Shown: positions 2,652-30,636 of the stretch, piece after piece | How positions within the stretch are numbered: the first letter of the stretch is position 1 | Layout: the number at the start of each line of letters is the position of its first letter | Origin: a virus | DNA: 52,121 bases | Virus record (IMG/VR): IMGVR_UViG_3300005618_000022 | Span: 1-52,121 of that record | Strand: one strand, 5' to 3' | Translations under genes and position numbers: made by a program | The notes under the pieces: generated by a model | The model's input: the letters and a program-made list of their open reading frames with translations, nothing else | Database searches by the model: none | Told to the model about the DNA's origin: nothing

Positions 2652-3606
2652 AACGAATCTGCTGATGAAGTGCGGTTATTGGGCGAGGTCGGACATCCCG
2701 GCTCCGCCCAATGACACAGGCGAAGGAGCGCATTACGGCATCGTAACGCACGCTATCGCTGAGCACCACAGCACAGGCGTTGAACTAGACCTGCAAGCTC
2801 TCGCCAATGAACACGAGCTCACACCAGAAAAGCTCGAGCAAGCGAAAGTCGACGGCTGGGCGTTGTACACGTGGCACCAAGAGCACATCGGTGGCACGAA
2901 GTATCACGAGCAGAAAGTCGCCTATAATGTCAACACTCGCACGGCGCGGGTACTCACCGAGCCAGAGCCGCGAGATTATACAGGCTGTGTTGACGGAGAA
3001 TTCCCCGGTACTGCAGATCTTATTGCAGTTAAGCCCGGCACAGTTTGCGTGGTTGACTACAAAACCGGGCACACCCCGTGGGAAATTTACAAGGATCAGC
3101 TGAACTTCCTGGGCCTAGCAGCCGCAAGGATTTACGATGCCACACGCGTTGTGTGCATCGTGCTGAAGGTTGCGTCTGGTGAGTGCTACCCGCATCACTG
3201 GGTACTGGAGAAGGAGAGGATCGACGAGTTCGAAGGACGCTTTATCACAGCGTTCCTCCACGTGCCAGGCAGCGAACCATCGCCTGGCCCGCACTGCGTG
3301 AATCTGTACTGCCCTATGGCTAGTACCTGCCCAGCTACTTTGAGCAAGCTCGAGCAATACACGGGCGCTGATCTGTTGAGCAACATCGACTCGTCGTGTG
3401 ACATCAAAGACGACGAGCAAGCCAACAAGCTGTACGAGATCAAGGCTCTGTTGACAAAGACAGGCGACGCGGTTAAAAAATCACTGAAGCTGTACGTTGA
3501 CCAATCGGGCGGATTTTTACTTCCCAACGGGAAAATGTACATGAAAGACAAGGGATCCTACAAGGAAACCCGCGTTCGAAATGAAAGAGGAAACGAAAAT
3601 GGCTGA
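2632..3606 (+). CDS. PD-(D/E)XK exonuclease, DUF2800/Cas4-like
   Basis: This protein of 324 residues belongs to the RecB-like nuclease group: an N-terminal NLLMKCGYWARSD segment and GTADLIAV followed by VVDYKTG, which gives the Asp and the D-x-K active site. C-terminal cysteines (CVNLYCPMASTC) are like the iron-sulfur ligands of Cas4 and AddB-type nucleases, though a full four-Cys set is not certain. It starts within the recombinase gene (20-bp overlap) and ends just inside ssb, which points to coupled translation. It probably resects DNA ends for Sak4-type recombination or phage DNA processing. Confidence 0.82.
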   Translation: MEASASRTNLLMKCGYWARSDIPAPPNDTGEGAHYGIVTHAIAEHHSTGVELDLQALANEHELTPEKLEQAKVDGWALYTWHQEHIGGTKYHEQKVAYNVNTRTARVLTEPEPRDYTGCVDGEFPGTADLIAVKPGTVCVVDYKTGHTPWEIYKDQLNFLGLAAARIYDATRVVCIVLKVASGECYPHHWVLEKERIDEFEGRFITAFLHVPGSEPSPGPHCVNLYCPMASTCPATLSKLEQYTGADLLSNIDSSCDIKDDEQANKLYEIKALLTKTGDAVKKSLKLYVDQSGGFLLPNGKMYMKDKGSYKETRVRNERGNENG

Positions 3607-4021
3607 TGGACTGAACAGAGCGACACTCCTTGGAAACCTCGGAGCTGATCCGGAGCTTCGATACACAAACTCGGGCAAAGCCGTCCTCAACATGAGGCTC
3701 GCTACGACCGAGAGCTATCTGGATGCAAACAAGGTCAGGCAGGAAAGCACGCAGTGGCACACGGTCACTCTGTGGGGCAAGCGTGGCGAGGCTCTCGCCA
3801 AGTTCCTCACGAAGGGATCGCGGATTCTCGTCGAGGGAAGCATCCGCAATTCGAGCTACGAGGACAAGGACGGTAACAAGCGTTACAAGTCCGAGGTCGT
3901 CGCGAACAACATCGTACTCTGCGGTGGTGCTCGAGCGGAGGGCAGCAATAGCGAACAGCAGGAGAGCGGTGGTAACTCTGCTGGTGGTGAAGAGGAAGAA
4001 GAGAGCTTCGACCGATTCTAG
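3599..4021 (+). CDS. ssb: Single-stranded DNA-binding protein
   Basis: The 140-residue protein has the bacterial SSB OB-fold: LNRATLLGNLGADPELRYT, the WHTVTLWGKRGE segment and LVEGSIRNSSYEDKDG. It ends in a Gly/Ser/Glu linker and the acidic tip EEEEESFDRF, similar to the DDIPF tail that recruits partner proteins. The start at 3599 is preferred over 3581 because AGAGGAAACG lies just before it and the conserved domain begins there. It closes the recombination trio with the Sak4-like ATPase and the nuclease. Confidence 0.95.
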   Translation: MADGLNRATLLGNLGADPELRYTNSGKAVLNMRLATTESYLDANKVRQESTQWHTVTLWGKRGEALAKFLTKGSRILVEGSIRNSSYEDKDGNKRYKSEVVANNIVLCGGARAEGSNSEQQESGGNSAGGEEEEESFDRF

Positions 4022-5427: not shown

Positions 5428-5551
5428 TAAAGCTCGTCCAGAAAACGTGCGTCGTCTTGCGAACTGGCTCCACGTCAATTACGACGGTTGGAGCCATAAG
5501 CATCTGGTGAAGTATCTAGCGTTTCTGTTCAAGAGCGGTCATGGCTTCTGA
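5405..5551 (+). CDS. Small helical protein, unknown function
   Basis: A 48-residue frame from GTG 5405 that overlaps the DUF5664 gene by 23 bases and ends in TGATG with the helicase start. The NVRRLANWLHVNYDGWSHKHLVKYLAFLF pattern is a two-helix motif found in short phage proteins. It fills the gap exactly, which supports it. Confidence 0.55.
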   Translation: MLTRQQLNKARPENVRRLANWLHVNYDGWSHKHLVKYLAFLFKSGHGF

Positions 5552-6921
5552 TGCCGCTGCGCGATTACCAAGAGCGAGCCGTAGAAAACGGCGCTGCTGA
5601 GCTCGAAAAACACCGGTCAGTTTGCCTAGTTGGCCCCACGGGTTGCGGCAAGACTAACACCGGAGTAGCGCTGGCACAAAAGTACGGTAAAGCTCTGTGG
5701 CTGTGCAACAGGCGCGACCTCTGCCGGCAGACGCAGCAACGCGTGTACAGCTACGGCGTTGACTGGCCCGTGCGGACGATACAAGGCTTCAAGACGCGCG
5801 CTAGGTGGCACTGGCCCGAAGCTGACGTGCTTGTTGTGGACGAGTGCCACCACGCGCCATCTGATAGCTGGGAATACGTTCTTCGTCGCTACCCGAACGC
5901 GAAGGTGATTGGGCTTACAGCCTCGCCAGAGCGCTACGACGGCCGTCCTCTCGATCATTTGTTCGAGTCGATGGTGAAGATCGCTGACTATAGCGAGCTC
6001 ATGGCGCAGGGGCATCTCGTGCCTTGCCGCGTGTTTCGGCCGAACAAAGACATCAACCGCGGGCTAGCACAAGACCCGCTGACTGCGTACCAGCGCTACA
6101 CGCCTGGAATGTGTGGCTTCTGCTTCGTGCAGAACAATAAGCACGCGCAGATGGTAAAAGAGAGCTTCGATCAGGCTGGAGTCAAAACAGCCATTGTGCA
6201 CGCCAAGAGCTCGGAGAAAGATCGAGTGCGTGCTATGGCAGAGCTCGAGTCAGGCGATATCCGCTTGATCATAAACTGCGCCACCATGACCGAGGGAGTA
6301 GACGTTCCCTCCGCTCAGGTGTGCATTCTAGCGCGCAAATGCGGGCATGAGGGCATCTACATTCAGACGACAGGACGTGTGCTGCGCCCGTCTCCAGGCA
6401 AGCCCTACGGCGTGCTGCTCGATCTCACGAGCGCAAGCGAGCGCCATGGGATGCCGACCGCAGATAGAGCGTACAGCTTGACCGGCACAGCGATCTCGCA
6501 GAGCAATCCAATACCGGTGAGGCAGTGCTATGAGTGTGGGGCTGTAATGGAGGCGTGGCGCAAGAGCTGCATTACGTGCGATACCGCTTTTATCCCTGGT
6601 GTGTTCAGGCCCCCCAAGATCAAAGACGTAGCTCTGCAAGAGGTCTACAACGGGTCAGAGACGCCAGAAGACGCGAAGCAGACCGAGCTCGCGCGCATGA
6701 CGACGATAGGCTGGCGATGGGCCGCTGCAGCAGAGCAGTTCGAGAAGCTGTTCGGCAGCCGACCGACTCAAGCCCAGTGGCTGCGCCTCGGACCGAAGGC
6801 AATCCGACAAGAGTGGTTCAAACTCGAGAAGAAGTTCGGAGCCAATAAAGCTTCTGTTATCATCAAATCATACACTGGACAATGGCCAGATTATCAGTTA
6901 CGTTTTGAACTGGAGAAATGA
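5551..6921 (+). CDS. SF2 DNA/RNA helicase (DEAD/DEAH type)
   Basis: This 456-residue protein starts with the Q-motif-like LRDYQERAVE. It then shows motif I GPTGCGKT (residues ~29-36), motif II DECHH (~98), motif III LTASPER, and motif VI-like QTTGRVLRPSPGKPYG in the second RecA domain. A zinc-finger-like segment (CYECGAVMEAWRKSCITC) and a short C-terminal region follow. It is of the RecG/UvsW-like group of phage helicases and probably unwinds branched or duplex DNA in replication and recombination. Confidence 0.9.
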   Translation: MPLRDYQERAVENGAAELEKHRSVCLVGPTGCGKTNTGVALAQKYGKALWLCNRRDLCRQTQQRVYSYGVDWPVRTIQGFKTRARWHWPEADVLVVDECHHAPSDSWEYVLRRYPNAKVIGLTASPERYDGRPLDHLFESMVKIADYSELMAQGHLVPCRVFRPNKDINRGLAQDPLTAYQRYTPGMCGFCFVQNNKHAQMVKESFDQAGVKTAIVHAKSSEKDRVRAMAELESGDIRLIINCATMTEGVDVPSAQVCILARKCGHEGIYIQTTGRVLRPSPGKPYGVLLDLTSASERHGMPTADRAYSLTGTAISQSNPIPVRQCYECGAVMEAWRKSCITCDTAFIPGVFRPPKIKDVALQEVYNGSETPEDAKQTELARMTTIGWRWAAAAEQFEKLFGSRPTQAQWLRLGPKAIRQEWFKLEKKFGANKASVIIKSYTGQWPDYQLRFELEK

Positions 6922-9393: not shown

Positions 9394-9575
9394 TGGGTTT
9401 CTACTGCGCCGAGTGCGGTAGTCTCGTCGTCAAAGGGCACGTGTCTGGGCCATGCGTGCTAGAATGCGACCGGTGTCACATGCAGTACAGGAGCGAAGGT
9501 GGTGCTGGTACCAAGTCTGTCATGATCGGGCGAGCTCCTCTTTACGCTTGTGAGCAGCTCTACTTCCGCCGATGA
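9393..9575 (+). CDS. Small zinc-ribbon protein
   Basis: A 60-residue protein with CAECG and CDRCH pairs that should bind one zinc. Its ATG overlaps the previous TGA and its stop overlaps the polymerase ATG, so it is tightly coupled to the DNA polymerase gene. Confidence 0.65.
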   Translation: MGFYCAECGSLVVKGHVSGPCVLECDRCHMQYRSEGGAGTKSVMIGRAPLYACEQLYFRR

Positions 9576-11917
9576 TTGTCATCAACGCGCTGTCGCGCGG
9601 AGACAAGATCGAATTCATCCAACCAGGCGGGTCGTCTATCTGGGTGCCTTGCACTTACGACTTCTTCATCCCAGGCAGCGACCCGCATCCGGTAGCCAAC
9701 TGCCGCAAAGAGAACGGCTGGTACCGAGTAAGCTGTGGAAGCTGGACCGAGCGCAGCGATCAAATACGCTACTGGCACAAGCTGGGAGTGCAGACGTTCG
9801 AAGGCGACGTTTCGCCCATCCGTCGTTATTTCGTCGATCACCCAGACACCCAAATCGGCAAGCCTTATGCGTGCTATCTCGACATTGAGGCTGACTCCAG
9901 AGCTAATTTCTTCCATCTCACCGCTGGCCACGCGCGCGTGCTTTGCTGGACCACGCAAGGCAAAGAGACTGGAAAGATCGTCCACCGCTGCCTGCAGTCA
10001 GACAGCGACGCCGACGAGCGTCGACTACTCGCTGCATTTTGGGAAACGTTCGCGCATTATGATCAGGTTCTCGCCTGGAACGGTGGCCAAATAGACAGCG
10101 ATATCCTGAAGACTGAGCACGCGAAGCACGGATTCGATTTCTATGTCATCGTGCGACGTTCGGCCCGTCTAGGCGTGCTACCCAAATGGTGGCGACGCAA
10201 GCTCTACCTCGATCACCTTGCGTGCTTCAAGCGCAACAACATGAACTCGGGCGATGCCTCAGAGAAGGTGTCTTTCTCCCTCGAGAACATCGGTATGGCT
10301 AAGGTCGGGCGAGGCAAGTCGCATTTCGACAGCTCGCGCACGTGGGAAGCCTGGTATGCCGGAGGCAAGAGCAGGCAAGATCTCAGCGATTACAACGTGG
10401 CTGACGTTGTGCTTGAGAGCGACATAGAGAAGGCGACCGACTACCTGTCTGTGTTTCAGTCTCTGTGCGAGGCGACCTGGGTTTTCCCTGATACGCCAGG
10501 GTTGCAGCCAATGCGCCAAGTAGACGGGCTCATGATGAGCTACGGCAACAGGCGAGGCGTTCACTTCAAGACCAAAGATCATGAAGCCGTCAACCCAGAT
10601 CAGTCTTTCGCTGGTGCTTACTGCGAGGGACCGAACCACGTGGACGAGTTGCGCTCTGAAGACGGGCTTGTGCACAACGTGCATGTGGCCGACTTTAAGT
10701 CACTGTATCCGTCGATCATGATCTCGCTGAACATCTCGCCAGAGCTGATTGGTTTGCCTGGCTCCACGTGTCCTGTGGACGAGGCATCGATGCAGAAGTA
10801 CGGCGTAACGAAGCCGATCACTTTCGGCACCGATGACGAAGGCGTGCTGCCCGAATGCGTGAAAGACATGCTCGCGTTGCGCGAAGAGTGGAAACAGCGC
10901 AGCAAAAAATTTCCCAAGGGATCGCCTGAGGAGCAGGAAGCGTCACGCAAATCAATGGCCTACAAGATGGCTGGGAACGCTTTCATGGGTGTTGCGTGTT
11001 CGCCTTACTCGCGTTATTCCAGCGTAGAGATCGGGCTGGCTATCACGCGCACAGGTGTTTCGCTGATCCACGCAGCTCGAGATGCATGCAGAGCTCGAGG
11101 ATGGCGCGTCATTTACATCGACACAGACTCGCTGTTTGTGGTGGGGCCCACAGTCGAGCAGTTCAAGGAGTTCACCTCGTGGTGCAATGCAGAGTTGTTT
11201 CCGAAGCTGGCGAAAGAATGGGGCTGCCGTGACAACATCTTCTATCTCGACTACGAAAAAGCGTTCGAAGGGATCGCGTTCACCTACGACGTCAAAAAGC
11301 GAAAGTACAATAGGAAGAAGTACGCATATCGCCTGGCTCACAAGGGTTTTACGCCGCCTAAGCCAGGAAAAGAGGTTGACGTTGTTGGTATTGAGTCTAA
11401 AAGAGGAGACTCGTGCGGACTTGCTAGAGAGTTACAAAAAGCAGTCATAGACAAGTTGCTTGGCTCAAAGCCTACAACAGCTGACGAGCTTGTTGCGCTG
11501 ATCGAGAAGTTCCGTTTACGCGTGTTCCACGAGGATCATCCCGTCGAAGCTGTCATGATCAGCAAGGCGATCAAAAAAGAGCTGGCCGATTTCGGAGACA
11601 AGAGCCTGCCCCACGTGAAAGCTGCGCGTCTACTGCAAAACAAGGGGCGAGAGGTTCGCGAGGGAACCAAAGTGCAGTTCGTTGTCGTTAACGGCGAGAA
11701 GAGCAAGAAGTACAACAAAGAAGGTGGCCAGCAGGTCATTCTCGCTGAGGACTACAAGGGCGATTTCGATCGTGTCTGGTTTTGGACCGTAGGGGTCTAC
11801 CCGGGAACGTATCGTATTGTCAAAGCAGCGTTCCCTCATGACGTGCGCTTTGACCGGTTCGCCCGTTACACGAAGTACAACCGGCTCGAGACGGCTGGTC
11901 AGTTGACACTATTCTAG
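9572..11917 (+). CDS. Family B DNA polymerase with 3'-5' exonuclease
   Basis: This polymerase is 781 residues long. Exonuclease motifs are intact: ExoI YLDIEAD (Asp104, Glu106), ExoII AWNGGQID (Asn170, Asp175) and ExoIII YNVAD (Tyr274, Asp278). The polymerase motifs follow: A DFKSLYPSI (Asp374), B YKMAGNAFMG, and C YIDTDSL (Asp517, Asp519). It is shorter than cellular PolB and has no obvious TPR1/TPR2 protein-priming insert, so it is more like RB69- or archaeal-type phage enzymes. It is the likely replicase. Z-DNA phages so far studied mainly use PolA-type DpoZ or a Prim-Pol, so a PolB beside PurZ is notable. The start overlaps the previous stop. Confidence 0.95.
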   Translation: MIVINALSRGDKIEFIQPGGSSIWVPCTYDFFIPGSDPHPVANCRKENGWYRVSCGSWTERSDQIRYWHKLGVQTFEGDVSPIRRYFVDHPDTQIGKPYACYLDIEADSRANFFHLTAGHARVLCWTTQGKETGKIVHRCLQSDSDADERRLLAAFWETFAHYDQVLAWNGGQIDSDILKTEHAKHGFDFYVIVRRSARLGVLPKWWRRKLYLDHLACFKRNNMNSGDASEKVSFSLENIGMAKVGRGKSHFDSSRTWEAWYAGGKSRQDLSDYNVADVVLESDIEKATDYLSVFQSLCEATWVFPDTPGLQPMRQVDGLMMSYGNRRGVHFKTKDHEAVNPDQSFAGAYCEGPNHVDELRSEDGLVHNVHVADFKSLYPSIMISLNISPELIGLPGSTCPVDEASMQKYGVTKPITFGTDDEGVLPECVKDMLALREEWKQRSKKFPKGSPEEQEASRKSMAYKMAGNAFMGVACSPYSRYSSVEIGLAITRTGVSLIHAARDACRARGWRVIYIDTDSLFVVGPTVEQFKEFTSWCNAELFPKLAKEWGCRDNIFYLDYEKAFEGIAFTYDVKKRKYNRKKYAYRLAHKGFTPPKPGKEVDVVGIESKRGDSCGLARELQKAVIDKLLGSKPTTADELVALIEKFRLRVFHEDHPVEAVMISKAIKKELADFGDKSLPHVKAARLLQNKGREVREGTKVQFVVVNGEKSKKYNKEGGQQVILAEDYKGDFDRVWFWTVGVYPGTYRIVKAAFPHDVRFDRFARYTKYNRLETAGQLTLF

Positions 11918-11949: not shown

Positions 11950-12438
11950 ATGACCATCAGACAAATGCTCAAGCAATTCTGCGCTGCTTTCGGGATCAAA
12001 AACCCAGAGTTCCCGATGGTTCCCAACGAGGAAGCGGTGCACAAGGCCGTGCGTCTCATCGCGGAGGAGTTCTGCGAGTTTCTCGAGGCCGTGTACGGCA
12101 AGCAACCTTGGATCGATGAGATTAAAGACATTCTGGCCGACTGCATTGGCTACGACCAGCCAGCCGTCGATCTTGTCGAGGCTGCCGATGCGCTGGGCGA
12201 TACAGCGTATGTCGTAGAGTCAGCATTTCAGGCTTTCGGCATCAACTCCGAGCCTGTGCTGGACGAAATTCATCGTACCAACATGAACAAGCGCGGTGGC
12301 GCCAAACGCGAAGACGGCAAGCAGCTCAAGCCCGAAGGCTGGCAACCTCCGCAAATTGCGCAGATTCTGCATGACCAAGTAGCCAGCTGCAGCCAGCCTT
12401 TCGAAGTAACTCACACCTGGGGAGGCTCGGACATCTAA
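11950..12438 (+). CDS. mazZ: MazG-like nucleotide pyrophosphohydrolase, MazZ-type
   Basis: The 162-residue protein has the all-alpha NTP pyrophosphatase signature: EExxE at 39-43 (IAEEFCEF) and ExxD at 77-80 (EAADALGD) for magnesium. The C-terminal VLDEIHRTNMNKRGG with KREDGKQLKPEGWQPP is usual in phage MazG-like enzymes. In Z-DNA phages the relative MazZ turns dGTP into dGMP, the substrate of PurZ. GGAGG lies 8 bases before the ATG. The MazZ assignment rests on the shared operon with purZ and the HD enzyme; MazG motifs alone would not prove it. Confidence 0.82.
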   Translation: MTIRQMLKQFCAAFGIKNPEFPMVPNEEAVHKAVRLIAEEFCEFLEAVYGKQPWIDEIKDILADCIGYDQPAVDLVEAADALGDTAYVVESAFQAFGINSEPVLDEIHRTNMNKRGGAKREDGKQLKPEGWQPPQIAQILHDQVASCSQPFEVTHTWGGSDI

Positions 12439-13061: not shown

Positions 13062-13236
13062 GCCCAAAGCGCTGGTCGACTTTCTCGAGATCGTGCGAGA
13101 AGCAGCCTACGGTGAGACGTGCGCTAGCTGTGCTGGGTGCAAGACACCCGATCTCAACTTCCGCGACGAGCTCTCGCGCAAAGAGTACAGCATCTCGCGT
13201 CTCTGTCAAAAGTGCCAGGACGAGGTCTTCGAGTGA
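13051..13236 (+). CDS. Small phage zinc-finger protein
   Basis: The 61-residue protein has CASCAGCK and, after FRDELSRKEYSIS, RLCQKCQDEVFE. The FRDELSRKEY ... CQKCQD layout is a widespread small phage family of unknown role with zinc-binding cysteines. It overlaps the preceding gene by 11 bases. Confidence 0.7.
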   Translation: MSTKPKALVDFLEIVREAAYGETCASCAGCKTPDLNFRDELSRKEYSISRLCQKCQDEVFE

Positions 13237-13802
13237 CAGAAGATGTCGTGGCTCTCTACGTCGAGCCACGGGGCCCGTACCCTAAGCTGGTGAGAGAGTG
13301 GTACGACGAGAAGCGCGACGCTCGCACGTACCAAGGCGGCAAGCCTGTTGTTGCGCATCCGCCGTGCGGCCCATGGTCGCGACTGAAGCACCTCCACAAG
13401 AAGCCAGAGGAAGCAGAGCTGGGCTTGCTGGCCGTGGAGCAGGTGAGGAAAAACGGTGGCGTGCTCGAGCAGCCGGCTAATTCCAAGCTCTGGGATGCAG
13501 CCGGCTTGCCTCGTCCTGGAGAACACGATGCGTATGGTTTCTCTATCGTCGTCGATCAATGCGCGTGGGGACACGTCGCAAGAAAAACCACGTGGCTCTA
13601 CTTTGTCCGAGTGGATAAAAACCTCGTGGATCGCACGTGCCGTTTTGGCGGAACTCCAACACACTGGTGCTCAGGCTCGCGCACTGCGCCCAGAGGCCCT
13701 GTACCACCTGGCATCAAGGTCTGTAGCAAGGCTCAACGAAACAGAACGCCTCTCGCATTTGCTGAGTGGCTGATTGAAATGGCGAGGGACGCAAAACGAT
13801 GA
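13233..13802 (+). CDS. Putative C5-methyltransferase-like protein (PPC motif)
   Basis: The start is GTG 13233, overlapping the previous stop (GTGA); the product has 189 residues. HPPCGPWSRL looks like the PPC catalytic-loop motif of cytosine C5 methyltransferases, and GGVLEQPANSKLW looks like the ENV-type region, but no clear SAM-binding FxGxG is visible. A related group in phages is annotated only as hypothetical. It may be a reduced or inactive methyltransferase, or another Cys-dependent enzyme. Confidence 0.5.
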   Translation: MTEDVVALYVEPRGPYPKLVREWYDEKRDARTYQGGKPVVAHPPCGPWSRLKHLHKKPEEAELGLLAVEQVRKNGGVLEQPANSKLWDAAGLPRPGEHDAYGFSIVVDQCAWGHVARKTTWLYFVRVDKNLVDRTCRFGGTPTHWCSGSRTAPRGPVPPGIKVCSKAQRNRTPLAFAEWLIEMARDAKR

Positions 13803-14326: not shown

Positions 14327-14619
14327 TGGCAGAGATCTACGGGCCGGATGGCAAAACGCTCATCGGCTACACAATGGATTTGGAAGAGCCGGCTCAGGTC
14401 AGCCCCAAGAACATGGGCGAGCTCATCCCGATCCGCAAGCCGGTGGACGAGGCGATGGAAGAAGTGCGCCAGGCGCGCGAAGTGTTGACAGAAGTGCAAA
14501 AGCGCTTTAACTGTGACGAAGTGATCTACAACGACTCGAAACGTGAGCTCGCAGAGGCGAAAAACGCCATGCGCGCGGCCGTGTACGAGCTCGAACGATC
14601 GCTCTACGCGGAGGATTGA
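14326..14619 (+). CDS. Small coiled-coil protein before purZ
   Basis: The 97-residue protein has a short beta N-terminus (MAEIYGPDGKTLIGYTMD) and a long charged helix in the second half (VDEAMEEVRQAREVLTE ...). It ends 2 bases before the purZ start, and its 3' end carries the purZ ribosome site. Confidence 0.65.
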   Translation: MAEIYGPDGKTLIGYTMDLEEPAQVSPKNMGELIPIRKPVDEAMEEVRQAREVLTEVQKRFNCDEVIYNDSKRELAEAKNAMRAAVYELERSLYAED

Positions 14620-14621
14620 TC

Positions 14622-15740
14622 ATGCGCGGTCATGTTGACGTTGTTCTCGATGCGGCGTACGGCTCTTCTGGCAAGGGCAAGCTGTCTACCTGGCTCGCCG
14701 ATCATAAGGGCTACGCTGGTGTTTCGTCAGCCAACTTCCCGAACGCCGGCCATACGGCGCTCCGTAACGGTTTCAAGTTCGTAGCCAAGGCCATTCCCAC
14801 GGCGGCGATGCTGTGGCGCGACTGCGAAGCCTGGGATTGCGCGTTCTTCCTCACTCCTGGTTCAGGCTTCACCTGGTCACAGCTCACGAAGGAATGGAAG
14901 GAGTGCGGCAAGCCTCCCATCTACATCCACGAAAGAGCGTGTGTCCTCACCGACGAGCATGCGGCGCGTGAGAGGGAAGGGGCCGAAAGCACAGCGCACA
15001 TCGCCAGCACCATGCAGGGCACGGCTGCAGCGATGACCGACAAGATCCTCCGCAAGCAGAACGCTCCTGTTGCTGCCCAGTACAGCGATGCGTTTCTCGC
15101 TCTGGAGGGCGTTCATATCCTGCAAGCCCAGAAGTTCCGTGACGCCATCCACGACATTCTCAGCTACGACGACATCTTGCACGAGGGATCACAAGGATAT
15201 GCGCTCTCTATCGACCACGGCTCGCACTATCCTCAGTGTACTAGCCGCAATTGCACTACCGCTGCCGCTCTGGATTATCTTGGCGTGGCACCTCAGAGAC
15301 TCGGCGACGTCTGGCTCAATATCAGGAGCTATCCAATCCGTGTCGGAAACATCGCCCAGGGTAGCTCTGGCGACTTCTATCCCGACAGCCAGGAAATCAC
15401 ATGGGCAGAAGTGGCGGCAAGAGCTGGAATGCCCTACGATGAGACCATCAAACTCGCCGAGCGTGAACGAACTACCGTCACCAAGCGGATACGTCGAGTA
15501 GCAACGTTCTCGTGGCAGAACCTCGAGGACGCTGTGCGCACGAACGGCGCGACCAAGCTGTGCCTCAACTTCGCCCAGTACATCGATTGGAGCGACAACG
15601 GTAAGCGAGACTTCGACAAGCTGACGCGCAACACGCGCGAATTCGTAGACGAGATCGAGACGAGGACTGGGCTGCCCGTGGCGCTCATCGGCACAGGCGC
15701 AGATCATGAAGACATGGTCGTCAGAGAGGAGTACGTGTGA
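14622..15740 (+). CDS. purZ: PurZ, N6-succino-2-amino-2'-deoxyadenylate synthase
   Basis: This 372-residue member of the adenylosuccinate synthetase family aligns with PurA along its length: the nucleotide loop YGSSGKGK (13-20), NAGHT with catalytic His44, LHEGSQGYALSIDHG, and a C-terminal GTGADHEDMV. Two changes mark it as PurZ. The catalytic Asp of PurA (WGDEGKGK) is Ser15, the hallmark of PurZ. The guanine-recognising TKLD motif reads NFAQ, so use of GTP is unlikely and ATP or dATP likelier. PurZ joins dGMP to aspartate, and host PurB then releases dZMP. The start at 14622 has GGAGG 7 bases before; a TTG two codons up is not preferred. Confidence 0.93.
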   Translation: MRGHVDVVLDAAYGSSGKGKLSTWLADHKGYAGVSSANFPNAGHTALRNGFKFVAKAIPTAAMLWRDCEAWDCAFFLTPGSGFTWSQLTKEWKECGKPPIYIHERACVLTDEHAAREREGAESTAHIASTMQGTAAAMTDKILRKQNAPVAAQYSDAFLALEGVHILQAQKFRDAIHDILSYDDILHEGSQGYALSIDHGSHYPQCTSRNCTTAAALDYLGVAPQRLGDVWLNIRSYPIRVGNIAQGSSGDFYPDSQEITWAEVAARAGMPYDETIKLAERERTTVTKRIRRVATFSWQNLEDAVRTNGATKLCLNFAQYIDWSDNGKRDFDKLTRNTREFVDEIETRTGLPVALIGTGADHEDMVVREEYV

Positions 15741-16132: not shown

Positions 16133-16354
16133 ATGTACGCCATCCGATACAAAGACATTGCAGAGCTCGACGGCACCGACGACATGAACTACTGGCTCGG
16201 TGCCAAAGACCTCGAGAGAGCAGAAAAGCTAGAAGACGTGGTGGTTGACTCGCCTCGTTTCGACAGGCTGAGATTCCGCCAGAAGTCGATCGCGCACCAG
16301 TTGCGTAAGATCATCGGTAAGGATTACTGCGTTGTAGTGAGGATCAGCGAATGA
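16133..16354 (+). CDS. Small protein, unknown function
   Basis: A 73-residue protein just before the HD hydrolase, overlapping its ATG. It contains MNYWLGAKDLERAEKLEDVV and a basic helix (RLRFRQKSIAHQLRKIIG). No family recognised. Confidence 0.6.
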   Translation: MYAIRYKDIAELDGTDDMNYWLGAKDLERAEKLEDVVVDSPRFDRLRFRQKSIAHQLRKIIGKDYCVVVRISE

Positions 16355-16938
16355 ACTTCGAAACCGCTGGCACCGTGAAAGGTGTCTCCAAGATTCCGAC
16401 TTTTTCTGGCCGGAACGTCGATCCTCTGAACCTCTGGCCTGAGGACATCGACATCTCCGATATCGCGCATGCGCTCTCTCGCATTGCTCGCTTCACCGGT
16501 CACACGGACGGCGAGTTTGCGTTCTCAGTCGCACAACACAGCTGCATCGTCTCGGATCAGCTTCCCGACGAGCTCAAGCTGTGGGGCCTGCTGCATGATG
16601 CTTCCGAGGCGTACCTAAACGACGTGTCCCGACCGCTCAAGTATTCGCCTGCGTTCAAGGGCTACCACGCGATCGAAAAGCAGGCGATGGCCGCCATCGT
16701 CGCTAAGTTCAAGCTCAGCCCAGACAACGAGCCAGAGGCAGTGAAACAGGCCGACGTGGTGTCGCTGTCCACCGAGTTCCGCGACCTCATGACCAAGTTC
16801 ACGCAAACCGAATACTGGGAACAAGTCAAGCCGCGTATGCCCAAACCGCTGCCTTTTACCATCGTGCCCTGGGCCCCCCAGCAGGCAGAGTTCGAGTTCC
16901 TCTCGCGTTACGCGCGCATTAACAAGGTGTCGCGGTGA
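16351..16938 (+). CDS. datZ: HD-domain dNTP phosphohydrolase, DatZ-like
   Basis: Length is 195 residues. The HD-fold metal site is visible: SVAQHS gives His63, LLHDASEAYLNDV gives His82-Asp83, and QADVV gives Asp135. The N-terminus (FSGRNVDPLNLWPEDIDI) is typical for a phage HD hydrolase group that includes DatZ, a dATP triphosphohydrolase which strips dATP from the pool so that Z is used in DNA. Similar HD proteins occur in phages without purZ, so the DatZ call rests on the shared operon with purZ and the MazZ-like gene. Confidence 0.8.
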   Translation: MNFETAGTVKGVSKIPTFSGRNVDPLNLWPEDIDISDIAHALSRIARFTGHTDGEFAFSVAQHSCIVSDQLPDELKLWGLLHDASEAYLNDVSRPLKYSPAFKGYHAIEKQAMAAIVAKFKLSPDNEPEAVKQADVVSLSTEFRDLMTKFTQTEYWEQVKPRMPKPLPFTIVPWAPQQAEFEFLSRYARINKVSR

Positions 16939-17222
16939 GCAAGCTGTTCGTGGATGACGAGCTGCAGGCTCTAGCTCTCGAGGTTGCAAAGGCAGACCGC
17001 AAGGCAGAGCTTCTCTGCGAGCAACGCAACGCTCTGCTAACGCAAGCCGAGGAGCTAAAGCCCATGCTGCAAGACGCACGCAACGACAGGCAAGAAGCTA
17101 ACAGCAAGCTGTGGAACGCTGTCCACAACAAGATCGATGCGCTGGCTGGTGATCCGTTGGTGGACGCTCTGCTGCGTGCGCGTAAAGACACCAACCGAGT
17201 TTACGACGAGGACGACCTATGA
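16935..17222 (+). CDS. Coiled-coil protein, unknown function
   Basis: A 95-residue protein from GTG 16935 (GTGA overlap). Residues 10-60 are an unbroken charged helix with heptad spacing (LALEVAKADRKAELLCEQRN ...). It precedes a second helical gene. Role unknown. Confidence 0.65.
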   Translation: MSKLFVDDELQALALEVAKADRKAELLCEQRNALLTQAEELKPMLQDARNDRQEANSKLWNAVHNKIDALAGDPLVDALLRARKDTNRVYDEDDL

Positions 17223-17554
17223 GTATACCCACCAATCTTTTCGCCGGCCCGACTGTCGAGGAGCTCACAGCACGAGAGCAAGAGCTACAGCGAGAGCTAT
17301 CGAAAGTGCAGACCCAGCTCGCCATCGCCAAGCAGCACGAAGTAGAGGCTCAGCGCCAAGAAGCAGCGAACGATATGGCCGTGCGGTTCACTGCGGCTGT
17401 GGCTGACGGTCGTATTATGGGCTACAATTCCAACTCGTACGCCGATCGAGGCAGCTACATGAACCGAGTCGAGTATCGCGAGAAGGAATGCCTCGAGGTC
17501 TATGGTAACGACGGGAGCGAGTGGCGTCTCGAGCGACAAAATGAGCACCTCTAA
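17219..17554 (+). CDS. Coiled-coil protein, unknown function
   Basis: This 111-residue protein has a long N-terminal helix (VEELTAREQELQRELSKVQ) then an aromatic C-terminal half (YNSNSYADRGSYMNRVEYREKECLEVYG). The 3' end overlaps the methyltransferase start by 14 bases. Confidence 0.65.
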   Translation: MSIPTNLFAGPTVEELTAREQELQRELSKVQTQLAIAKQHEVEAQRQEAANDMAVRFTAAVADGRIMGYNSNSYADRGSYMNRVEYREKECLEVYGNDGSEWRLERQNEHL

Positions 17555-18089
17555 GCTTCCTCGCGTGCTCGTCGCTGACCCGCCTTGGATGATCGGGCAG
17601 GCGTTCAAAACGACAGCGGCGAAGAAGCATTACGACCTTATGAAAGACGAGGATATCCTCAACTTTCAGTTGCCCATCATGGCAGACGATTCGCTGCTCT
17701 TCCTGTGGCGTCTCGCCTCGCGTCCTCAGATCGCCTTCGACGTCATGAAGAAGTGGGGATACACGTACAAGACGGAGCTCGTGTGGGTCAAGACCACGAA
17801 AGAGTTCGAGCCCGTCGAGCGTGAAGGAGAACTTCCTGAAGCTCTCCTTGCTTTTGGCAACGGTCATTATGTGCGCGCAGCTCACGAGGTCTGCATGATT
17901 GGTCGACGAGGCCGTGGCCATGTCGACTCTCACAGCACGCGTTCTGTCATCATTGCACCACGCGGCCGTCACTCGGCCAAACCCGACGAGTTCTATAACG
18001 CCGTAGAGGCGATGTGCAAAGGCCCCTACGTCGAACTGTTTGCAAGAACCCAGCGCACAGGCTGGCAACAATACGGAGATGAGATATGA
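17541..18089 (+). CDS. MT-A70 family N6-adenine DNA methyltransferase
   Basis: The protein is 182 residues long. It begins with VLVADPPWMIG, the DPPW catalytic motif of MT-A70 methyltransferases, and continues with SLLFLWRLASRPQ, ELVWVKTTK, HEVCMIGRRG and a C-terminal YVELFARTQRTGW that holds the SAM-binding side. The order of motifs fits beta-class single-domain phage enzymes. It would transfer a methyl group to the N6 amine. Because this phage likely carries 2-aminoadenine, the base it methylates is an open question. The start at 17541 begins at the domain edge. Confidence 0.85.
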   Translation: MSTSKLPRVLVADPPWMIGQAFKTTAAKKHYDLMKDEDILNFQLPIMADDSLLFLWRLASRPQIAFDVMKKWGYTYKTELVWVKTTKEFEPVEREGELPEALLAFGNGHYVRAAHEVCMIGRRGRGHVDSHSTRSVIIAPRGRHSAKPDEFYNAVEAMCKGPYVELFARTQRTGWQQYGDEI

Positions 18090-18707: not shown

Positions 18708-18949
18708 AGGATGCAATCGGAAACGATATCAAGCTTGGCAGCACGATCGTGCACGCCTGCTCTAGCTACGGCCACAGGGTCAGCATGCAGACAGGTGTCG
18801 TGACCAAACTTCGACACGTCGAGCAACAGAGCCGTCGCCGCGGGAACTTCACGCGTGACACGATTTGGTACGATGGCCCCAGGGGCCTCTGCTTTGCGAG
18901 GGATTCCAAGCGAGTCGTCGTTGTGACTTCTCCTGTCGCCAATGCCTAG
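18704..18949 (+). CDS. Small SH3-like barrel candidate, unknown function
   Basis: An 81-residue protein that shares the beginning M-K-D-x-x-G-x-x-I-x-x-G-S with the proteins at 4176 and 29864. The TGVVTKLRH and RRRGNFTRDTIWYDGPRG segments suggest short beta strands and a basic surface. It lies just before the primase and overlaps its start by 8 bases. Confidence 0.65.
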   Translation: MKDAIGNDIKLGSTIVHACSSYGHRVSMQTGVVTKLRHVEQQSRRRGNFTRDTIWYDGPRGLCFARDSKRVVVVTSPVANA

Positions 18950-21167
18950 CAACGTCGTCGAGTTCCAGCAGCTACCGGAACTCTCACCCATGGGCCAGCG
19001 GGCGCTAGAGTACGCGCAAGCTGGCCTATTCGTGTTTCCGGTGTGGGGCCTGCTCGATGACCTTGGTTGCGCCTGTCCCGAGCATGGGAACTGTGGCTCG
19101 CCAGGCAAGCACCCAATGGTCAAGTCTGGTCTCAACGTAGCGACCACGGCGGACGACCAAATCCGCAAGTGGTGGCGCAAGTGGCCTAAGGCTAACATCG
19201 GCATCAACGCCGACAAGTCTGGTCTCCTGATCTTGGACATCGACCCGCGCAACGGTGGCAACGAGTCGCTCGACAAGCTGGAGAAAGAGTATGGCGATCT
19301 GCCGCCCACGTACGAGGTTCGCACTGGTGGAGATGGACGACACTTCTACTTCAAACACGAGCCAGCCGTCAAAAGCAAGCCTATTGCTGCTGGAATCGAC
19401 ATTAAAAGTAAGGGAGGATATGTTGTCGCTCCTCCTTCTCTCCATCATAGTGGCCGCACTTATGAAGCCACTTTGGCTGGCAATCCTCGAGGCTTCATTC
19501 TTGATGCTCCTGACTGGGTTGTCGATCTGTGTACACGAGAGCCTGAAAAGAAAGCTCACTCGCCAAAGCCTGTTGCAAAAGGTCGAGAACCGAAGCAAAT
19601 ACCTGTCGAGTCCGGACTCTACGGTGCAGCTCTCAAGCATGCTGGCTGGCTCGGTGAGTACGTTGGACAGGGACGCTGTGCTTGTCACTGCCCGTTCATT
19701 TCCCAGCACACTTCAGGCGTTGACCTCGATGGATCCTGCGTCGTCTTCGCACCAGAAAATGGCGGCGTTAATGGATACATTCACTGCTCGCACTCCCATT
19801 GCGCCAACAGAACCCAGCCCGAGTTCTGGGCCGCAATTCCCGCCGTATCGCGTGACGCTGCGAAAAGCCAGCTTCAGGTAAATCCACTCTACGAACCTGC
19901 TGCTACCGCTGACGTCGAGTGGTGCAAATCGTGGCGCTCCTCGCTTCTGTTCGATAACAAGGGCAGATTAAAGCGCGTGCTGGGCAACGCGTCCCTCATC
20001 CTCAAGAACCATCCCGAGTTTGCTGGTTGTCTCGGTTTCGACGAATTCAAAGAGAGCTACGTGTGGCTCAAGAAACCGCCGTCCATCGTCGGGCTTGATG
20101 ACGTGAAGCTCGGCCCAGTGAAGGACGAGCACTTCCTGCAGATCGGCTATTACCTGTCTGCGCGCTACGATATGCAAGAGTTCTCGTCAGACAACATCTT
20201 CCAAATCATGCGTGGCGCTGCGATCCCGTTTCATCCCGTGCGAGATTACCTGAACTCGCTCGTGTGGGACAAAAAGCCTCGTCTCATTAAGTGGTTGTCC
20301 ACGTACCTGGGAACGCCTGACGACAAGTACACGCGTCTCGTTGGGCCCATGTGGTTCGTTTCTGGTGTGGCTCGCATCGCAGAGCCAGGATGCAAGGCTG
20401 ACCATGTCCTCATTCTCGAAGGAAAGCAAGGAACGCAGAAGTCTACAGCTCTCCGTATTGTCTTTCAGCCTTGGTTTGCTGACACCCCTATTAACCTCGA
20501 TAGTAAAGACGCCTACACTGCTCTGCGAGGAATCTGGGGATACGAGCTGCAAGAGCTACAGTCACTTTCTAAAGCCGATACGGATAAGGCGAAAGCATTT
20601 TTTTCCTCTCCTGTTGACATATACCGCAAACCTTACGACAGAACCACCGTCGAGATCAAACGACAGTGCATCTTCTGTGGAACGGTAAATTACGATGTCT
20701 ATCTCAAAGACGGCTCGGGCAATAGGCGTTATCTCCCTGTGGCAACAGGGAAGATTAACATTCCCGCACTCGAACGAGATAGAGACCAGCTTTGGGCTGA
20801 GGCCGTCGAGATGTACAACAAGGGTTTCAAGTGGTACCCTGAAACAGACGAGGAACACGAGCTCTGCCACGACGAGCAAGAGAAGCGACTGCAACTCGAC
20901 GAAGACCCGTGGACCGAGACCGTGCGACAAGCAACGGAGAACCTCACGCATTGCACGGTGGCTCAGCTTCTGGCTGACCCCATCCATTTCCCGCACTGTA
21001 AGCGTGACCTCAAAGACGCCATCCGCGTTGCGCGCATCTTGCGTGAGCTCGGCTGGGAGAAGTACAACACTGCCAATGGTAAAGCCTGGCGCCTGATCAA
21101 CCGCAACGAGAACGAGAGGAAAACGCCAAATGAACTGGACAACAATGCTAGTCTGCTTACTCGGTGA
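18942..21167 (+). CDS. Prim-Pol and VirE-type primase-helicase
   Basis: A 741-residue two-domain protein. The N-terminal primase-polymerase (AEP) domain shows ALEYAQAGLFVFPV, GKHPMVKSGL, the LDIDPRNGG catalytic DxD (Asp99, Asp101), the GGDGRHFYF His motif and GGYVVAPPSLHHSG. The C-terminal VirE-like SF3-type helicase domain holds ILEGKQGTQKST (Walker A) and ELQELQSLSKAD, then GNRRYLPV. It should synthesise primers and unwind DNA. In cyanophage S-2L a Prim-Pol copies Z-DNA, so this enzyme may also act as a polymerase here beside PolB. Confidence 0.9.
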   Translation: MPSNVVEFQQLPELSPMGQRALEYAQAGLFVFPVWGLLDDLGCACPEHGNCGSPGKHPMVKSGLNVATTADDQIRKWWRKWPKANIGINADKSGLLILDIDPRNGGNESLDKLEKEYGDLPPTYEVRTGGDGRHFYFKHEPAVKSKPIAAGIDIKSKGGYVVAPPSLHHSGRTYEATLAGNPRGFILDAPDWVVDLCTREPEKKAHSPKPVAKGREPKQIPVESGLYGAALKHAGWLGEYVGQGRCACHCPFISQHTSGVDLDGSCVVFAPENGGVNGYIHCSHSHCANRTQPEFWAAIPAVSRDAAKSQLQVNPLYEPAATADVEWCKSWRSSLLFDNKGRLKRVLGNASLILKNHPEFAGCLGFDEFKESYVWLKKPPSIVGLDDVKLGPVKDEHFLQIGYYLSARYDMQEFSSDNIFQIMRGAAIPFHPVRDYLNSLVWDKKPRLIKWLSTYLGTPDDKYTRLVGPMWFVSGVARIAEPGCKADHVLILEGKQGTQKSTALRIVFQPWFADTPINLDSKDAYTALRGIWGYELQELQSLSKADTDKAKAFFSSPVDIYRKPYDRTTVEIKRQCIFCGTVNYDVYLKDGSGNRRYLPVATGKINIPALERDRDQLWAEAVEMYNKGFKWYPETDEEHELCHDEQEKRLQLDEDPWTETVRQATENLTHCTVAQLLADPIHFPHCKRDLKDAIRVARILRELGWEKYNTANGKAWRLINRNENERKTPNELDNNASLLTR

Positions 21168-21210: not shown

Positions 21211-21296
21211 TGGAAGAAATCGTCTACTTCGTACTGGTGTTTTCAACTGGTACGACTTTCGGAGCCCTTCTGGTGCTATTGATGGGGCGCCTATGA
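21207..21296 (+). CDS. Tiny membrane peptide (29 aa)
   Basis: The ATG overlaps the previous TGA, and AGGAA lies close upstream. The product is one hydrophobic helix (IVYFVLVFSTGTTFGALLVL) and ends in an ATGA overlap with the SLOG gene. The coupling on both sides supports translation. Confidence 0.5.
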   Translation: MMEEIVYFVLVFSTGTTFGALLVLLMGRL

Positions 21297-21784
21297 GCCA
21301 GCCTCGCATTTGTGTTTTCGGCGGTCGTCAGTTCGGGTTCGAGCTCATTGAGTACGGACCCTCGCACAAACTTGCTGGCCACAAGATCTGGGTACCCAAG
21401 CCGTACGTGATCGAGTGGTTCAACAAACAGCTCACACAGAATTTCCTCGTCGATGTAATGTCCTATCGGGATCCCATCCTCGTCTCTGGCTCTTGCCCCA
21501 CTGGTGCTGACTTCTTGGCTGAAGCCTGGGCCGCACAGCATGGTGTGTCTATCGAGCGACATCCAGCCGACTGGTCGCAGGGCAAGTCCGCTGGCCCCAA
21601 GCGCAACGAGGAGATGGCGAGCTCTGGGCTTGCGTGCGCGCTTCAGTTCACGGGCCAGAGAGGCACGACCGACATGCACAACCGCTGCATCAAGCACGAG
21701 GTCTGTCTCTTCGACTTCACAGATCTCGAGCCCAAAGAGCCTCGACGTGATAACAGCTACAAGCTAGGGCAGGCAGGCTTTTAA
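21293..21784 (+). CDS. SLOG-fold (YspA/DUF2493-like) protein
   Basis: A 163-residue Rossmann-like protein. MSQPRICVFGGRQF, SGSCPTGADFLAEAWAAQHG and RHPADWSQGKSAGPKRNEEMA are the SLOG nucleotide-binding signature found in YspA and YpsA-related proteins. SLOG domains bind nucleotide ligands and appear in NAD- or nucleotide-signalling defence systems, but many phage copies have no known role. In this operon it could bind or cleave nucleotide derivatives made for Z-DNA; that is inference. Confidence 0.8.
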   Translation: MSQPRICVFGGRQFGFELIEYGPSHKLAGHKIWVPKPYVIEWFNKQLTQNFLVDVMSYRDPILVSGSCPTGADFLAEAWAAQHGVSIERHPADWSQGKSAGPKRNEEMASSGLACALQFTGQRGTTDMHNRCIKHEVCLFDFTDLEPKEPRRDNSYKLGQAGF

Positions 21785-29867: not shown

Positions 29868-30175
29868 AAGACACGTTCGGGCGAAGAATCAACAAGGGCG
29901 ACATCATCCTCTACTGCACGCGCCGTGGCTCGTCGCAGAGCATGCAGCTTGCGGTCGTCGACGAGGATCTGTTCGACAACCAGATCAAGGCGCACACTGT
30001 CGCCGGCAACACGTGGGAATGGCGCATGGGCGACTGGAATCCGCAGGACGGCCACGTGCTTTACACGGGTCGCTCGGTCACGCTCACGCAGCCGCGCAAC
30101 GTCGTCATCGTCAACGGCATCGACATCGACGACATCAAGGCGCGCGTCGAGAAGGAGCAATTTCGAGCTGCATGA
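29864..30175 (+). CDS. SH3-like barrel candidate, unknown function
   Basis: The 103-residue protein shares the opening M-K-D-x-x-G-x-x-I-x-x-G-D with those at 4176 and 18704. Strand-rich segments (DIILYCTRR, MQLAVVDEDL, TLTQPRNVVIVNG) suggest a small barrel with a C-terminal helix (IDDIKARVEKEQF). It could bind nucleic acid. Confidence 0.65.
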   Translation: MKDTFGRRINKGDIILYCTRRGSSQSMQLAVVDEDLFDNQIKAHTVAGNTWEWRMGDWNPQDGHVLYTGRSVTLTQPRNVVIVNGIDIDDIKARVEKEQFRAA

Positions 30176-30636
30176 GCTCTCTCGATTCAACCCGCGGGTT
30201 TTTCGCGATCGGCATCGAGCACGGCAAGACGCCACAGAACATTGGCACTCTGTGGCGTAGCGCCGATCTCCTCGGTGCTCAGTTCATCTTCACTGTTGGA
30301 GCGCGTTATCACGCGCAGTCGGCCGACACGATGAAAAGCTGGAAGAATATCCCGCTGTTCCACTACCTGACGATCGACGACCTCGTCGATCATCTGCCCA
30401 ACGACTGCCAGCTCGTTGGAGTAGAGCTCGACCCGACTGCGAGACCGCTCGAGACCTTCTGTCATCCGAACCGCTGCTGCTATTTGCTCGGCGCAGAGGA
30501 TCACGGTCTCACGAAAGAGGCACTCAACCGATCGCACCTGCTCGTCCAGCTACCAGGTCGATTCAGCATGAACGTTGCATCCGCTGGAACGGTCGTCATG
30601 TACGACCGCCACCTGAAAGCCGAGGTTTGTCTATGA
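30172..30636 (+). CDS. SPOUT (SpoU/TrmH-type) RNA 2'-O-methyltransferase
   Basis: The 154-residue protein shows the three SpoU motifs: GKTPQNIGTLWRSADLLGAQFIF, CCYLLGAEDHGLTKEAL and VQLPGRFSMNVASAGTVVMYDRH. The trefoil-knot fold binds SAM and dimerises. It lacks the extra N-terminal RNA-binding domain of TrmH, so it is a minimal form. A phage enzyme of this kind would modify tRNA or rRNA ribose and may serve to adjust or protect host translation. Confidence 0.9.
   Translation: MSSLDSTRGFFAIGIEHGKTPQNIGTLWRSADLLGAQFIFTVGARYHAQSADTMKSWKNIPLFHYLTIDDLVDHLPNDCQLVGVELDPTARPLETFCHPNRCCYLLGAEDHGLTKEALNRSHLLVQLPGRFSMNVASAGTVVMYDRHLKAEVCL

What the first reader, a model, noticed from the sequence alone, without database searches (positions are those of the whole stretch)
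17541..18089. An adenine methyltransferase in a genome that should lack adenine
The MT-A70 protein has an intact DPPW motif and lies 0.6 kb after the DatZ-like gene. If adenine is replaced, its substrate must be Z (giving N6-methyl-2-aminoadenine, a double modification), leftover A, host DNA or RNA. Any of these would be informative.
Basis: inference. Interest (0 to 1): 0.8.

Follow-up and report, generated by a model that had tools for sequence, protein, structure and literature searches.

The report
Phage adenine methyltransferase beside PurZ gene
A bacteriophage carries an intact but ordinary-looking adenine-methylating enzyme next to a gene that makes a replacement for adenine, yet the other genes expected in a fully adenine-free phage are missing, so the apparent contradiction is not established.

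Summary
The MT-A70 gene is real and intact (17541-18089 +, 182 aa; Pfam MT-A70 7.4e-25; predicted fold matches METTL3/MTA1, Z about 16; DPPW and the other catalytic motifs present). It shows no sign of adaptation to 2-aminoadenine (Z). The premise, a genome that should lack adenine, is only partly supported. A PurZ gene with all tested PurZ-diagnostic residues is present. The 'DatZ-like' gene, however, belongs to the generic phage HD/YfbR-type family: grouping it with DatZ is rejected (AU p = 2e-5). No MazZ or DpoZ/PolA orthologue was found. PurZ plus MT-A70 does not recur: 2 of 83 PurZ records scanned, both the same phage; 0 of 24 records of its closest MT-A70 relatives have PurZ. Best reading: a phage early-gene N6-adenine methyltransferase, probably methylating A (perhaps also Z) in DNA that keeps some A. 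The window's PurZ belongs to an environmental clade, mostly on large contigs, outside the isolate clade. Six of those contigs (257-436 kb) carry PurZ, a DatZ-family HD protein, PolA and a Dam-family N6-adenine methyltransferase with intact DPPY. They are a better test case for N6-methyl-Z than the window.

The parts
17541..18089 (+). MT-A70 N6-adenine methyltransferase, 182 aa, single catalytic domain
   Evidence: PF05063 7.4e-25; phrog_359 2.5e-49; best solved-structure sequence match MTA1 7f4r 7.3e-22, METTL3 about 2e-16; predicted model mean pLDDT 81.5, VIA Z 16.6 to METTL3 5il1 and 16.4 to MTA1 7f4l
17219..17554 (+). small ORF (111 aa) whose end overlaps the MT-A70 start; function unknown
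   Evidence: ORF list; no Pfam match above cut-off, no PHROG match
16351..16938 (+).
   Evidence: phrog_318 5.5e-57; 2gz4 3.3e-21; tree and AU test against DatZ
14616..15740 (+). PurZ, 2-amino-adenylosuccinate synthetase homologue (TTG start; in-frame ATG at 14622)
   Evidence: phrog_1211 5.8e-55; phiVC8 PurZ 6fm1 1.7e-37; PurZ-diagnostic residues; NCBIfam PurZ model 201.6 bits, below its cut-off of 300
11950..12438 (+). MazG/PRA-PH-like all-alpha pyrophosphohydrolase, nearest solved relative DR2231, not a MazZ orthologue
   Evidence: PF01503 3.9e-11; phrog_671 6.1e-25; 5i0m DR2231 6.6e-18; no MazZ profile hit in the window
9572..11917 (+). family-B DNA polymerase
   Evidence: PF00136 8.9e-32; phrog_262 1.4e-44
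18942..21167 (+). PrimPol-VapE-type primase/helicase
   Evidence: PF09250 1.6e-40 and PF05272 3.1e-72; its helicase part is similar to S-2L PrimPol at 5e-25
5551..6921 (+). superfamily-2 helicase
   Evidence: PF04851 3.1e-20; phrog_16 9.4e-64
3581..4021 (+). single-strand DNA-binding protein
   Evidence: PF00436 1.3e-32

Best explanation
The gene encodes an ordinary, intact phage methyltransferase of the MT-A70 family, read with the early replication genes. Shown: family, fold, motifs, position. Inferred: it uses S-adenosylmethionine to methylate the N6 amino group of adenine in DNA, most likely the phage's own, as a mark against host restriction. Inferred: the phage makes some 2-aminoadenine nucleotide with PurZ, but since no DatZ, MazZ or Z-selective PolA was found, its DNA probably keeps adenine, wholly or in part. 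Adenine would then be the main substrate and Z at most a slower one. The pairing with PurZ looks like a chance acquisition rather than a joint system.
For: Family and fold. Motif columns conserved among 24 relatives are kept. The one residue that departs from all 24 is Tyr74, where they have Phe; MTA1 shows Tyr at that position in the alignment, so it is no Z adaptation. DatZ absent. MazZ absent. PolA absent. Pairing not recurrent: PF05063 in 2 of 13 (window and near-identical twin), 0 of 50 and 0 of 20 PurZ isolates (positive control hit); PurZ in 0 of 24 records of its nearest MT-A70 relatives. Relatives of this MT-A70 are in 321 of 50,697 phage records, about 0.6%, so one phage in about 82 PurZ records is no enrichment.
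Against: PurZ keeps every PurZ-diagnostic residue tested, and the PurZ phages characterised in the papers read replace A completely. NAR 2026 (PMC12884076, abstract, sections 24 and 25) describes independently acquired enzymes doing the DatZ/MazZ jobs, so the window's HD, MazG-like and PolB proteins could be such replacements. The window may be incomplete, and DatZ could lie outside it. A 182-aa MT-A70 domain without a recognition domain could also act on RNA.
Confidence: 0.5

Rival explanations
1. The phage genome is fully Z-substituted through non-canonical helpers, and the MT-A70 enzyme methylates Z, giving N6-methyl-2-aminoadenine in phage DNA.
For: PurZ active site intact. HD, MazG-like and PolB genes lie in the same gene cluster and could replace DatZ, MazZ and DpoZ. 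The S-2L paper (PMC8342488, passages) cites work in which E. [quoted passage not shown]
Against: No DatZ/MazZ/PolA orthologue; no window-specific change in the aligned motif columns of the MT-A70; no recurrence of the pairing; Z already blocks most restriction enzymes, so methylation would be redundant.
Confidence: 0.18
2. Phage DNA is Z-rich and the enzyme acts on host DNA (normal A) or on RNA, changing host gene expression or marking host DNA.
For: Host DNA and all RNA keep A whatever the phage genome contains; MT-A70 includes the RNA enzyme METTL3; several phage relatives are annotated as IME4-like transcriptional activators.
Against: Those names are annotation transfers. The best sequence match is the DNA enzyme MTA1 and PHROG/PADLOC label the family a DNA/type II methyltransferase.
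Confidence: 0.22
3. The gene is an inactive or decaying passenger.
For: No relative above 48% identity in alignment A2, and the only near-identical copy looks like the same population (1 mismatch in 13,775 bases), so selection cannot be measured.
Against: Uninterrupted frame, all motif residues kept, confident fold for most of the chain.
Confidence: 0.1

Closest known systems
Phage MT-A70 methyltransferases (PHROG 359, Pfam PF05063)
   Same: Single-domain DPPW methyltransferase encoded by tailed phages
   Different: None of its 24 nearest records in IMG/VR carries PurZ
Tetrahymena MTA1 and human METTL3 (solved structures)
   Same: Catalytic domain fold and motifs
   Different: Those work with partner subunits (complexes named); the phage protein is the catalytic domain alone
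S-2L / phiVC8-type Z phages (PurZ, DatZ, MazZ, PrimPol or DpoZ)
   Same: PurZ with the same diagnostic residues; a PrimPol protein as in S-2L
   Different: No DatZ, MazZ or PolA orthologue; a family-B polymerase; an N6-adenine methyltransferase, absent (MT-A70, D12, N6_N4 families) from all 20 PurZ isolates scanned
Large environmental PurZ contigs, six with the set PurZ, DatZ-family HD, PolA and Dam (G003, G039, G042, G044, G052, G061)
   Same: Same PurZ clade as the window and also an N6-adenine methyltransferase
   Different: Their methyltransferase is the different Dam/D12 family; they carry a DatZ-family HD protein and PolA

Membership tests
MT-A70 family methyltransferase | Score above the curated Pfam cut-off over the whole domain | tested here: met
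   88.3 bits against 23.9, profile positions 2-172 of 172
MT-A70 family methyltransferase | Catalytic DPPW motif and conserved C-terminal motif residues | tested here: met
   DPPW at 13-16; W82, K84, E116, RHSAKPDE 143-150, R169, W175, G179 kept. RHSAKPDE was one of the search patterns, so its conservation among relatives is partly by selection
MT-A70 family methyltransferase | N6-adenine methylation activity | not testable with these tools
   needs an enzyme assay
PurZ (2-amino-adenylosuccinate synthetase) | Ser in place of the catalytic Asp13 of PurA, and other PurZ-specific residues | tested here: met
   GSSGKG; S23, V241, T273, V275, N305, F306, Q308 (S-2L numbering) all shared with S-2L PurZ. 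Ser alone is not exclusive: a Rhizobium plasmid homologue has GSEGKG
PurZ (2-amino-adenylosuccinate synthetase) | Score above the curated NCBIfam PurZ cut-off | tested here: not met
   201.6 bits against 300; S-2L and phiVC8 score 349.8 and 397.2. It is still the best-scoring NCBIfam model for the protein; I therefore call it a PurZ homologue by tree and residues, not by this cut-off
DatZ (dATP triphosphohydrolase) | Membership of the DatZ sequence family | tested here: not met
   phrog_7076: no window match, 9 of 9 PurZ-type isolates match; in a tree the protein sits with generic phage HD proteins (100/99) and joining it to DatZ is rejected, AU p = 2e-5
MazZ (dGTP pyrophosphohydrolase) | Similarity to MazZ-1/MazZ-2, gene between datZ and purZ | tested here: not met
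   no window hit at E below 1 to a MazZ profile of four isolate sequences; the window's MazG-like gene is upstream of purZ and resembles DR2231
DpoZ (Z-selective PolA) | Family-A DNA polymerase in the genome | tested here: not met
   PF00476: no match in the window, 4 of 5 isolates match; the window record may be incomplete
Complete Z genome | Z in place of A in virion DNA | not testable with these tools
   needs nucleoside mass spectrometry

The most novel reading that the evidence does not exclude
Some PurZ-bearing phages place an N6-methyl group on 2-aminoadenine in vivo, a doubly modified base: by MT-A70 in the window's phage and, more strongly indicated, by a Dam-family enzyme in large phages that also carry a DatZ-family protein and PolA.
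Probability: 0.15. Interest if true: 0.85.

Novelty: new variant of a known kind. Interest (0 to 1): 0.42.

Why it matters
If PurZ phages also carry active N6-adenine methyltransferases, either the rule 'PurZ means no adenine' fails for a whole PurZ clade, or nature makes N6-methyl-2-aminoadenine. Either answer is obtained with one mass-spectrometry measurement or one methylation assay. The work also shows that calling a neighbouring HD gene 'DatZ' by position alone is unsafe.

Tried and rejected
The HD gene as DatZ: rejected. The idea that phage MT-A70 genes habitually travel with this HD family: no match to phrog_318 in 25 MT-A70 records, so the two are not linked either. The six Gordonia phages with MT-A70 hits as the six Gordonia PurZ phages: the two members looked at differ, Fosterous (Vividuovirus) for MT-A70 and Ghobes (Ghobesvirus) for PurZ; the other members were not compared. 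A Z-specific change in the methyltransferase: none found in the aligned motif columns; base-pocket contacts at atomic level were not tested. Selection on the gene: not measurable, since the only close copy differs by 1 base in 13,775. Large-contig HD proteins as true DatZ: undecided; they match phrog_7076 at 5e-17 to 2e-23 (S-2L DatZ 1e-23), but that model also rings in E. coli and three other control genomes, and grouping them with DatZ is neither supported nor rejected (AU p = 0.226).

Against my reading, told in full: D12-family methyltransferases occur in 7 of 28 and 2 of 34 other environmental PurZ records, N6_N4 in 1 of 28, so N6-adenine-type methyltransferases with PurZ are not unique to the window. 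I did not measure how common D12 is in other large phages, so no enrichment is claimed. One D12 hit (G064) has no DPPY in the frame I read; the motif of the weak G011 hit was not read.

Literature: no paper in the held library was found with N6-methyl-Z in a phage. One search (six spellings) gave two papers, of which one is the S-2L discussion and the other a nucleoside-analogue paper seen only in the listing. One search listed 30 of 108 papers; none of those 30 held both MT-A70 and aminoadenine. One search listed 15 of 114; none of those 15 held PurZ with 'huge phage', and one (PMC12697855) held one mention of PurZ with two of 'jumbo phage', which I did not read.

Full report
What is there. 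The window is a single 52,121-base virus record. An open frame at 17541-18089 on the + strand encodes 182 residues matching Pfam MT-A70 at 7.4e-25, over the whole model and above its cut-off, and phrog_359 'DNA methyltransferase' at 2.5e-49. The nearest solved sequences are Tetrahymena MTA1 (7.3e-22) and METTL3 (about 2e-16). An AlphaFold model built on 17 aligned sequences has mean pLDDT 81.5 and aligns to METTL3 at Z 16.6 (rmsd 3.0, 160 residues) and MTA1 at Z 16.4 (rmsd 2.2, 138 residues). DPPW is intact. Among 24 relatives every column that is at least 75% conserved is kept or replaced by a residue also seen among the relatives (for example L for I, D for N; L33 against a T majority), with one exception: Tyr74, where all 24 have Phe (M119 against an L majority is the other residue not seen among them). 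MTA1 also has Tyr at the Tyr74 position in the alignment. Tail and head genes (terminase, portal, protease, tail sheath and a tail protein) mark it as a contractile-tailed phage.

The premise. A purZ-like gene (14616-15740) is convincing. It matches phrog_1211 at 5.8e-55 and phiVC8 PurZ at 1.7e-37, carries Ser for the catalytic Asp (GSSGKG), and shares with S-2L PurZ positions S23, V241, T273, V275, N305, F306 and Q308. NAR 2026 (PMC12884076, section 24) reports Ser in 100% of 147 phage PurZ sequences. Against this, the NCBIfam PurZ model scores 201.6 bits, below its cut-off of 300. In a tree of 75 rows the window sits in a 35-row clade (SH-aLRT 99) of environmental contigs, mostly large, outside the clade of characterised isolates. 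That clade has no characterised member that I know of.

The other Z-phage genes are not there as orthologues. The 'DatZ-like' gene 16351-16938 is a generic phage HD phosphohydrolase: phrog_318 at 5.5e-57, nearest solved protein Atu1052 at 3.3e-21 with no DatZ entry at E below 1, 44% identical to an HD protein of Tunturiibacter phage Tunturi_4. The DatZ family phrog_7076 matched 17 of 49 records: 9 of 9 PurZ-type isolates, 0 of 2 PurZ0 isolates, 8 of 37 environmental PurZ contigs, and not the window. A tree joins the window protein to four generic HD proteins (100/99) and rejects joining it to DatZ (AU p = 2e-5). The MazG-like gene resembles DR2231, not MazZ, and a MazZ profile finds nothing in the window. 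There is no family-A polymerase; the polymerases are family B and PrimPol-VapE. Complete replacement of A is therefore not shown. It is not excluded either: NAR 2026 (abstract and section 25) describes independent acquisitions of enzymes doing these jobs, and the record may be incomplete.

Does the pairing mean anything? MT-A70 was found in 2 of 13 PurZ records (the window and its near-identical twin), 0 of 50 more and 0 of 20 PurZ isolates (where a positive control hit). That is 2 of 83, one phage; one of the PurZ loci, L091, was not scanned. Conversely PurZ was found in 0 of 24 records of its nearest MT-A70 relatives. Relatives of the window MT-A70 occur in 321 of 50,697 phage records, about 0.6%, so one phage in about 82 is no excess. 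The two scans use different methods, and the one positive is the case that prompted the search, so this is a rough comparison.

Where the question is sharper. Dam-type (D12) methyltransferases turned up in 7 of 28 and 2 of 34 other environmental PurZ records and in none of 20 isolates; N6_N4-type in 1 of 28 environmental records and none of 20 isolates. Six large contigs (G003, G039, G042, G044, G052, G061; 257 to 436 kb) hold PurZ, a phrog_7076-matching HD protein, PolA and a D12 enzyme; DPPY is intact in all six. The two of them scanned against NCBIfam (G052 and G003, as L133 and L134) pass the Dam subfamily cut-off. Their HD proteins may be DatZ or YfbR-like; the data do not decide. These, not the window, best pose the puzzle of an adenine methyltransferase in a Z genome.

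Mechanism. My best reading is post-replicative N6 methylation of adenine in phage DNA as protection from restriction, in DNA that retains A. That it uses S-adenosylmethionine follows from the family; substrate and purpose are inferred. [quoted passage not shown] Because Z alone already blocks almost all adenine-site restriction enzymes (same paper), methylation would then be largely redundant, which fits the absence of these three methyltransferase families from the 20 PurZ isolates, though 0 of 20 is weak evidence for a gene family this uncommon.

Verdict. The enzyme is a new member of a known family; the phage's PurZ module without DatZ, MazZ or PolA, with a family-B polymerase and MT-A70, is a variant not seen among the isolates examined.

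Noticed in passing
L029, L043, L046, L048, L056, L065 (contigs G003, G039, G042, G044, G052, G061): Six large viral contigs (257-436 kb) carry PurZ, a DatZ-family HD protein, PolA and a Dam-family N6-adenine methyltransferase with intact DPPY.
   Followed up: partly
L028-L068: A clade of PurZ homologues on environmental contigs, many over 150 kb, lies outside the PurZ isolates; the window PurZ belongs to it.
   Followed up: partly
L139, Rhizobium leguminosarum plasmid pRLN3: A plasmid 'adenylosuccinate synthetase' has Ser (GSEGKG) in place of the catalytic Asp, like PurZ.
   Followed up: no
window 30172-30636 (+): SpoU-type RNA methylase (PF00588, 2.9e-20) in the small-gene region.
   Followed up: no
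window 13137-13802 (+): Unknown protein (phrog_12600, 1.6e-49) with an HPPCGPW stretch, reminiscent of a methyltransferase motif but without any Pfam match.
   Followed up: no
window 21293-21784 (+): SLOG-family (YspA/cpYpsA-related) protein (PF10686) just after the PrimPol gene; Z phages Bm1 and OH carry a gene annotated phosphofructokinase near purZ, relation untested.
   Followed up: no
L094 (Bacillus phage vB_BpsS-140): A cultured PurZ phage with no phrog_318 (DatZ-like HD) match and an adenylate kinase gene; its PurZ branches near the base of the PurZ part of the tree.
   Followed up: no
L072 (contig G068): PurZ contig with two N6_N4-type methyltransferase matches.
   Followed up: no
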